This document shows, one piece after another, positions 4,965 through 45,688 of a stretch of 64,000 bases of DNA. Under the pieces are notes generated by a model. The model ran no database searches, was not told the DNA's origin, and saw only the letters and a program-made list of their open reading frames with translations. How positions within the stretch are numbered: the first letter of the stretch is position 1; every line of letters begins with the position of its first letter. The stretch comes from Dehalogenimonas sp. W (GTDB taxonomy: Bacteria; Chloroflexota; Dehalococcoidia; Dehalococcoidales; Dehalococcoidaceae), in NCBI RefSeq assembly GCF_037094495.1, contig NZ_CP146612.1, positions 1,178,001 to 1,242,000 on the forward strand, read 5' to 3'. The position numbers and the translations under genes were made by a program.

Positions 4965-5897
4965 GTGGACAAACCTAAACTGGCTTTCGTCTTTCCCGGT
5001 CAGGGCGCTCAGGCGCCCGGTATGGGGCAGGACGTATACGATGAATTTGACGCCGCCCGCGCCGTTTTCAAAGCTGCCGATGACCGGCTGGGTTTCGCCA
5101 TTTCCAAACTGTGTTTTGAAGGCCCGGAAGATAAGTTGAAGGAAACGGCCATCGCCCAACCGGCGATGGTCACCGCCAGCCTGGCTTATCTGGCCGCGGC
5201 CCGGGACATGGAAGTACTGCCGCAGCCGGATTTTGTGGCCGGCCACTCGCTGGGTGAGTACACTGCTCTGGCGGCCGCCGGGGCGCTGGAGTTCGCCGAT
5301 GCCATTCAACTGGCCGCCCTGCGGGGCCGCTTGATGCAGCTGGCGTCTCAGGAATCCCCCGGTACCATGGCCGCAGTCATGGGCATCAGTGAGACTGACC
5401 TGGGGGTCATCGCCGCTAACGGCGGTATTTATATCGCCAATTACAACAGTCCCGGCCAACTGGTGATTTCCGGTGCCCGGGAGAATATGGCCGGAGTCAT
5501 GGAAACCCTCACCGCCAAAGGCGCCCGGGTAATCCCGCTGGCGGTGTCCGGTGCTTTTCACACCCCCCTCATGGCCGGGGCCGCTGATGGCCTGGCCAAA
5601 GTGGTGGAGCGGCTGGAGTTCAAGGACGCAGCAGTGCCCATTATTGCCAATACCAGCGGCCAGCCGATAACCGCCGCCGAAGATATCCGGGCGGAACTGC
5701 TTAAGCAGTTGACCGAAAGCGTCTACTGGCAGAAATCAGTGGAATACATGATTGCTGAAGGCGTGACCACTTTCGTAGAAATCGGTCCGGGTAAAGTCCT
5801 GACCGGTTTGATTCGCCGCATCAGCCGGGACGTCCGCACCATGAATATCGGTGATGCTCAGTCTATCAAGAATATGCAGGCGGGCGCGTGGAATTAG
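4965..5897 (+). CDS. fabD: Malonyl-CoA:ACP transacylase
   Basis: FabD loads malonyl from CoA onto the acyl carrier protein (acpP at 7084). The 310-residue protein has the FPGQGAQ start region, the nucleophile elbow GHSLGE (Ser95) and the catalytic His in GAFHTP (His199). GTG start at 4965, preceded by AGGGGGAT. It overlaps fabG by 10 bases, so the two are probably translationally coupled. Confidence 0.97.
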   Translation: MDKPKLAFVFPGQGAQAPGMGQDVYDEFDAARAVFKAADDRLGFAISKLCFEGPEDKLKETAIAQPAMVTASLAYLAAARDMEVLPQPDFVAGHSLGEYTALAAAGALEFADAIQLAALRGRLMQLASQESPGTMAAVMGISETDLGVIAANGGIYIANYNSPGQLVISGARENMAGVMETLTAKGARVIPLAVSGAFHTPLMAGAADGLAKVVERLEFKDAAVPIIANTSGQPITAAEDIRAELLKQLTESVYWQKSVEYMIAEGVTTFVEIGPGKVLTGLIRRISRDVRTMNIGDAQSIKNMQAGAWN

Positions 5898-45195: not shown

Positions 45196-45314
45196 AGTCT
45201 GACCTCCGGTATCCTTTCGCCCAAATGCTAACTGAGCATGGTTGCCTGCTCTCTGTTCTCGTATATGCTCATATATGTGACGATGGAAAAAGAAAATATT
45301 ACCCCAAATTTTGG

Positions 45315-45360
45315 GGGTATTAATACCCTCTTGACATTGTCCAACAAAGTCATTTATAAT
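45315..45360 (+). promoter_or_regulatory. Consensus promoter with upstream palindromes
   Basis: TTGACA (45331-45336), 18-nt spacer, TATAAT (45355-45360): both boxes match sigma-70 consensus fully. A perfect 14-bp palindrome GGGTATTAATACCC (45315-45328) ends 2 nt before the -35, and an overlapping imperfect one (ACCCCAAA / TTTGGGGGT) spans about 45301-45318. The palindromes are probable operators. Confidence 0.8.
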
Positions 45361-45453
45361 AGGGTACTCTTAATCAGGCCGGTAAAGGCCCGTATGAGCC
45401 ACCGGTCTCCATAAAGGGAAACGAAGCACACATAGATAGAGAGGACAAAGCAC

Positions 45454-45624
45454 ATGAAACAGTCAAGTTTCCAGGTTGCTACTTCACATTGCGGTCTATG
45501 TCACTACTCCGGCTATTCAAATCGCTGCACTTTCTTTGAAGATGGCGTTTGCCCCTACATTCAGAGCGTGCGCGATATCAAAAAGGGTGTCCGCAGCAAC
45601 AAAGAGGCCGAAGTCAAGGCCTAA
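45454..45624 (+). CDS. Small cysteine-rich protein (56 residues)
   Basis: Starts MKQSSFQVATSHCGLC and has four Cys (HCGLC, NRCTF, GVCPY), enough for one zinc or iron site, then a charged helix. No family recognised. GAGG precedes ATG 45454. The leader of about 87 nt contains a GCCGGT...ACCGGT hairpin. The strong promoter, operator-like palindrome and terminator make it a single-gene unit under control. Confidence 0.75.
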   Translation: MKQSSFQVATSHCGLCHYSGYSNRCTFFEDGVCPYIQSVRDIKKGVRSNKEAEVKA

Positions 45625-45655: not shown

Positions 45656-45688
45656 AATCGGCGGGGAAGCAAAACCCCGCCGATTTTC
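45656..45688 (+). terminator. Terminator after the small Cys-rich gene
   Basis: Arms AATCGGCGGGG (45656-45666) and CCCCGCCGATT (45675-45685) around an 8-base loop, followed by TTTTC. Confidence 0.88.

What the first reader, a model, noticed from the sequence alone, without database searches (positions are those of the whole stretch)
45301..45624. Fully consensus promoter with palindromic operator driving a 56-residue Cys-rich protein
Seen: TTGACA-18-TATAAT, a perfect 14-bp palindrome (45315-45328) ending 2 nt before the -35, an overlapping second palindrome, a leader of about 87 nt with a GCCGGT/ACCGGT hairpin, a small four-Cys protein and a strong terminator. Inferred: a strongly expressed, switchable single-gene unit, possibly metal- or redox-responsive. 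No regulator gene is adjacent.
Basis: partly seen in the sequence, partly recalled or inferred. Interest (0 to 1): 0.6.

Follow-up and report, generated by a model that had tools for sequence, protein, structure and literature searches.

The report
Cys-rich protein under shared respiratory operator
A small four-cysteine protein of Dehalogenimonas, a bacterium that respires chlorinated solvents, sits behind a perfect promoter and a DNA switch (GGTACTAGTACC) that also sits on genes for tungsten and molybdenum uptake, molybdenum cofactor and respiratory enzymes, which points to an undescribed common regulator in these bacteria.

Summary
The palindrome alone is weak evidence (nine perfect 14-mers in 64 kb). 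Comparison makes the case. The gene is in all 8 Dehalogenimonas genomes, each with TTGACA-18-TATAAT, and in 7 of 8 a GGTAYTARTACC-like site abuts the -35 at a fixed position; six have another copy after the -10. The same 12-mer, searched genus-wide, lies almost only in promoters: Moco-riboswitch tupA and moaA (between -35 and -10; 12 of 19 riboswitch promoters), rdhA genes, SDR, Usp/flavodiiron and GAPDH, with variants upstream of fdnG/omeA. In Dehalococcoides the single exact site sits at a molybdopterin-oxidoreductase operon. So the 'switchable' reading is supported. The likeliest mechanism is repression by an unidentified regulator shared with Mo/W and respiratory genes. A TOBE-type ModE was not found and Crp/Fnr is unlikely. 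The protein has no known family; its function (small metal- or thiol-binding accessory) is inference. The leader hairpin is not conserved.

The parts
45300..45319 (.). Second, overlapping inverted repeat TACCCCAAATTTTGGGGGTA; a CCCC...GGG element is seen only here and in the close relative G001
   Evidence: role unknown
45315..45328 (.). Operator palindrome GGGTATTAATACCC; 12-bp core GGTATTAATACC at 45316-45327
   Evidence: fixed place next to the -35 in 7 of 8 genomes; same 12-mer class in other promoters
45331..45336 (+). -35 hexamer TTGACA
   Evidence: invariant in 8 of 8 genomes
45355..45360 (+). -10 hexamer TATAAT, spacer 18
   Evidence: invariant in 8 of 8 genomes with the same spacer
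45367..45453 (+). Predicted leader, about 87 nt, with a hairpin near 45377-45407 that is not conserved; ribosome-binding site AGAGGA 45440-45445
   Evidence: start site inferred from the -10, ribosome-binding region conserved
45454..45624 (+). 56-aa protein with C-x2-C-x8-C-x7-C and CHY-x-G-x-SN
   Evidence: no family match
45656..45685 (+). Intrinsic terminator, 11-bp stem followed by TTCT

Best explanation
The unit is an autonomous gene for a small Cys-motif protein, made from an intrinsically very strong sigma-70-type promoter that is held in check by a dimeric repressor. The repressor binds GGTAYTARTACC next to the -35; in most relatives it can also bind copies in the spacer or just after the -10. 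When its signal is present the repressor lets go and the small protein is made at a high level. Shown here: the conserved promoter and operator geometry, the promoter location of the operator genus-wide, and its sharing with tupA, moaA, fdnG/omeA, rdhA, SDR, Usp and GAPDH genes, and with a molybdopterin-oxidoreductase operon in Dehalococcoides. Inferred: that one protein binds all these sites, that it represses, that it senses respiratory or Mo/W status, and that the small protein binds a metal or an Fe-S cluster through its cysteines to serve these enzymes or handle redox stress. The regulator gene has not been identified.
For: TTGACA-18-TATAAT in 8 of 8 orthologues, a site 14-15 nt before the -35 in 7 of 8, six with another copy downstream of the -10, 15 sites against 0.43 in shuffles. 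The 12-mer class, defined on these promoters, recurs 1-7 times per genus genome, above its reversed control in 7 of 8 genomes; 30 of 34 sites are outside ORFs while 86% of bases are inside. Targets recur between species: tupA, moaA, SDR, Usp/flavodiiron, rdhA, GAPDH. 12 of 19 Moco-riboswitch promoters have it within one mismatch between -35 and -10. Variants lie just before a putative -10 of fdnG/omeA in ten genomes of two genera. The only exact site in each of three Dehalococcoides genomes is at the start region of a molybdopterin-oxidoreductase operon. Overlap with the core promoter fits repression.
Against: No binding or expression data. The palindrome has decayed in G001 although the gene and promoter are kept. 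At this gene the site abuts rather than overlaps the -35, where activators can also bind. G005 gave no match for the fdnG query, the Moco riboswitch or TOBE yet keeps operators on this gene, so a purely Mo/W sensor does not fit. G005 has just one exact site against 3 control matches. The binder is unidentified, and more than one regulator could use similar sites.
Confidence: 0.62

Rival explanations
1. Same operator and regulon, but the binding protein activates at this gene: the site just upstream of the -35 helps RNA polymerase rather than blocking it.
For: The one site in this genome ends 2 nt before the -35 and leaves both hexamers free; the upstream position is the one best kept across species.
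Against: The promoter already matches consensus in all 12 bases, and activators usually serve weak promoters (general knowledge). Relatives add copies in the spacer and after the -10; tupA and moaA have it between -35 and -10.
Confidence: 0.13
2. A local regulator of this gene alone, for example a MarR-type protein encoded elsewhere, binds here; the other GGTACTAGTACC sites belong to other paralogous MarR regulators with similar sites.
For: A marR gene lies divergent from rdhA with the site between them in G004. MarR control of rdhA is reported for the family (PMC13390414).
Against: The same exact palindrome recurs at unrelated genes and even across genera; no marR lies beside this gene or beside tupA/moaA sites in the regions read.
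Confidence: 0.15
3. The control is by RNA: the leader hairpin is a riboswitch or attenuator for the small gene.
For: Leader fold z -2.7; several other genes with the operator also carry Moco riboswitches.
Against: No Rfam match at E 1, hairpin not conserved in relatives, no terminator-like site in the leader.
Confidence: 0.04
4. The palindrome is chance; the gene is constitutively and strongly expressed.
For: Perfect 14-bp palindromes are common (9 in the window); it is lost in G001 while the promoter is intact.
Against: Fixed-position conservation in 7 of 8 genomes and the shuffle test; the same 12-mer recurs in other promoters.
Confidence: 0.06

Closest known systems
MarR-type repression of rdhA promoters in Dehalococcoides and proposed in Dehalogenimonas (PMC13390414)
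   Same: Palindromic operator overlapping or next to core promoter elements in the same family of bacteria; one site found here lies between rdhA and a divergent marR.
   Different: Here the palindrome serves genes far from any marR, including Mo/W uptake, Moco synthesis and formate dehydrogenase; binding protein unknown.
ModE/TunR control of molybdate and tungstate genes (general knowledge)
   Same: Operator on tungstate uptake and Moco synthesis genes.
   Different: No HTH-TOBE protein found; TOBE matches fit only Mop-sized and transporter-ATPase-sized frames, and there are none in Dehalococcoides or G005. Targets go beyond Mo/W.
Moco riboswitch RF01055
   Same: tupA and moaA in the same operator set carry it.
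   Different: Absent from the leader studied here.
Small Cys-motif metal or Fe-S proteins (zinc ribbons, rubredoxins; general knowledge)
   Same: Short, with two pairs of cysteines.
   Different: C-x2-C-x8-C-x7-C with CHY-x-G-x-SN matches no Pfam family above its cut-off, no NCBIfam family and no convincing PDB sequence.

Membership tests
GGTAYTARTACC operator set of Dehalogenimonas (defined here) | Site within or next to the core promoter | tested here: met
   Exact site 45316-45327, 3 nt before the -35
GGTAYTARTACC operator set of Dehalogenimonas (defined here) | Site conserved at the orthologous promoter | tested here: met
   7 of 8 genomes; lost in G001
GGTAYTARTACC operator set of Dehalogenimonas (defined here) | All sites bound by one regulator | not testable with these tools
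   Needs pull-down, EMSA or DAP-seq
ModE-type regulon | HTH-TOBE regulator in the genome | tested here: not met
   PF03459 matches sit in frames of Mop (about 77 aa) and transporter ATPase (about 366 aa) size only; none in G005 or Dehalococcoides
Crp/Fnr regulon | HTH_Crp_2 regulator in every genome that has the operator | tested here: not met
   G008 has the exact site but no PF13545 match; present in all Dehalogenimonas
MarR-type rdh regulon | MarR gene associated with the operator | tested here: inconclusive
   One marR beside a site (L055); none beside this gene; MarR genes were not surveyed genome-wide
Moco riboswitch RF01055 | Aptamer in the leader | tested here: not met
Known metal or Fe-S small-protein families | Profile match | tested here: not met
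Metal or Fe-S binding protein (by function) | Four conserved Cys ligands | tested here: inconclusive
   All four Cys invariant in 8 aligned proteins, third Cys lost in the distant G016 copy; model pLDDT 51

The most novel reading that the evidence does not exclude
A single undescribed repressor of the Dehalococcoidaceae coordinates tungstate/molybdate uptake, Moco synthesis (stacked on Moco riboswitches), formate dehydrogenase/OmeA, some reductive dehalogenases and a Cys-motif protein that is a new metal or Fe-S handling factor for this respiratory machinery.
Probability: 0.33. Interest if true: 0.72.

Novelty: new member of a known kind. Interest (0 to 1): 0.5.

Why it matters
Regulation in organohalide-respiring Chloroflexota is known mainly at single rdhA loci. 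A family-wide operator gives a concrete bait for finding a global regulator that may connect cofactor supply with the respiratory complex, and it places an orphan, probably strongly expressed small protein in that context. The operator sequence was not found in the searched open literature.

Tried and rejected
A relaxed pattern (3 mismatches) gave fewer hits than its control and was used only as a lead list. ModE-type regulator rejected by the TOBE search. Crp/Fnr judged unlikely. A winged-HTH gene lies beside the distant homologues in G016 and G050, but it has no match in this genome and those loci show a different palindrome, so it is not the binder here. Riboswitch in the leader rejected. 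Leader hairpin not conserved. Structure prediction uninformative, so no fold search was made. The likeness of the G001 upstream DNA to a mop promoter is an 87-bp duplicated block, not independent operator evidence. A first DNA alignment mixed strands and was discarded (redone). Resemblances of the palindromes to trp-repressor or CsoR sites are recalled only and were not tested.

Full report
Setting. The window lies in a closed 1.77-Mb genome. The strain name is an inference. The sister genus in the searches is taken to be Dehalococcoides.

Observation. The promoter matches consensus in 12 of 12 bases with an 18-nt spacer. The 14-bp palindrome GGGTATTAATACCC is perfect, but nine perfect 14-bp palindromes occur in this window, so on its own it would prove little.

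The gene. Orthologues exist in all eight genus genomes at 72-87% identity for the other seven, between rarA and the mmdA/pyruvate-carboxylase/aconitase cluster in each; in G005 an extra ORF lies between (gene names). Changes are mostly synonymous and fall at third codon positions, so it is a real protein. Invariant residues include the four cysteines and CHY-x-G-x-SN. A search of 400 genomes of the phylum found it only in this genus; a search of the order added a few divergent homologues, one of which lacks the third Cys. No known family matches, the best PDB sequence hit is weak (E 0.024, a thioredoxin), and AlphaFold gave pLDDT 51. Its biochemical function is unknown; four conserved cysteines in a 56-mer suggest metal, Fe-S or thiol chemistry (inference).

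Promoter and operator across the genus. With the loci put in the same orientation, all eight have TTGACA-18-TATAAT. In seven, a GGTAYTARTACC-like site begins 14 or 15 nt before the -35: AGGTACTAGTACCTATTGACA in G003 and G004, TTAGTACTAATACCTATTGACA in G005, GGGTATTAATACCCTCTTGACA here. G003 and G004 add a copy in the spacer. Six genomes have another just downstream of the -10, followed 14 nt on by a further RGTAC. Fifteen sites with at most two mismatches were found, against a shuffle mean of 0.43. In G001 the palindrome has decayed; the DNA directly upstream there includes an 87-bp block, 91% identical to DNA upstream of the mop promoter.

The operator elsewhere. The 12-mer class was defined from these promoters and then searched in whole genomes. 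There are 1-7 exact sites per genus genome, above the reversed control in seven of eight (G005 has 1 against 3). Of 34 distinct sites, 30 are outside ORFs although 86% of the bases are inside; the other four lie at the 5' ends of ORFs called from the first possible start. In this genome the four exact sites are upstream of tupA, an SDR, this gene and moaA. Recurrent targets in the genus are tupA and moaA with Moco riboswitches, SDR, a Usp gene divergent from a flavodiiron protein, two types of GAPDH, several rdhA genes and a radical-SAM gene (the last named from its sequence only). An independent test started from the riboswitch: 12 of 19 Moco-riboswitch promoters carry the site within one mismatch, including every tupA and moaA among them, placed between the -35 and -10. 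Promoters of fdnG/omeA in seven Dehalogenimonas and three Dehalococcoides genomes carry variants of the same element just before a putative -10. In the three Dehalococcoides genomes the only exact site lies just after the TTGACA-18-TATACT-like promoter of an FeS/NrfD/molybdopterin-oxidoreductase operon, with a second copy at the same 14-bp step.

Mechanism. Sites that overlap the spacer, the start region or the -35 edge of otherwise perfect promoters are the geometry of repression. The tandem occurs in both orientations relative to transcription and in genes with unrelated leaders, so it most likely acts as DNA rather than RNA. I therefore favour a dimeric repressor that holds a very strong promoter off until a signal arrives, shared with Mo/W and respiratory genes. 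Binding, sign of control, signal and regulator identity are inferred. A TOBE-domain ModE was not found. Crp/Fnr is unlikely because one Dehalococcoides genome with the site has no HTH_Crp_2 match. The winged-HTH gene beside the distant homologues has no match here. A MarR protein remains possible: one site lies between rdhA and a divergent marR in G004, and MarR control of rdhA is reported in the family (PMC13390414).

Limits. G005 gave no match for the fdnG query, the Moco riboswitch or TOBE, yet keeps the operators on this gene, so the regulator is probably not only a Mo/W device, unless the searches missed those genes; PMC13390414 says that fdn is conserved in all strains it studied. No transcriptome could be consulted. 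A key paper on rdhA regulation in Dehalococcoides was not held, so a related operator may already be published.

Verdict. The protein's own role remains open.

Noticed in passing
L048 2037, L050 2072 and the other Moco-riboswitch loci: tupA and moaA promoters in Dehalogenimonas combine the GGTACTAGTACC site between -35 and -10 with a Moco riboswitch in the leader: two layers of control on the same genes.
   Followed up: partly
L115 7765, L116 6490, L117 6094 (Dehalococcoides): The only exact site per genome lies at the start region of an FeS/NrfD/molybdopterin-oxidoreductase operon, as a tandem with a 14-bp step.
   Followed up: partly
L147-L156, upstream of fdnG/omeA: Variants such as GGGACTAGTACT lie just before a putative -10 in ten genomes of two genera.
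   Followed up: partly
L057 2004, L071 2071, L082 2030: Two distant types of GAPDH in different species both have the palindrome in the promoter.
   Followed up: no
L055 2030 (G004): Exact site between an rdhA and a divergent marR; from gene order this may be the rdhA for which PMC13390414 mentions only a 6-bp palindrome.
   Followed up: no
L140, ORF 306-716 after the aptamer start (G003): A Fur-like regulator gene follows a Moco riboswitch whose promoter carries the operator with one mismatch.
   Followed up: no
L100 4641-5203 and L101 107-990: Distant homologues of the small protein lie divergent from a winged-HTH gene, again with TTGACA-18-TATAAT but with a different palindrome near TTCGTAT.
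   Followed up: partly
L093 about 5780-5870 and L132 1363-1448 (G001): An 87-bp block, 91% identical, lies upstream of both the small-gene promoter and the mop riboswitch promoter, as if a promoter-upstream segment had been copied.
   Followed up: partly
L102 1-1886 (own genome, near 910,000): The fdnG/omeA frame is 191 aa long and then goes on in a second ORF, as expected for a selenocysteine TGA; Dehalococcoides has one open frame of 1014 aa.
   Followed up: no
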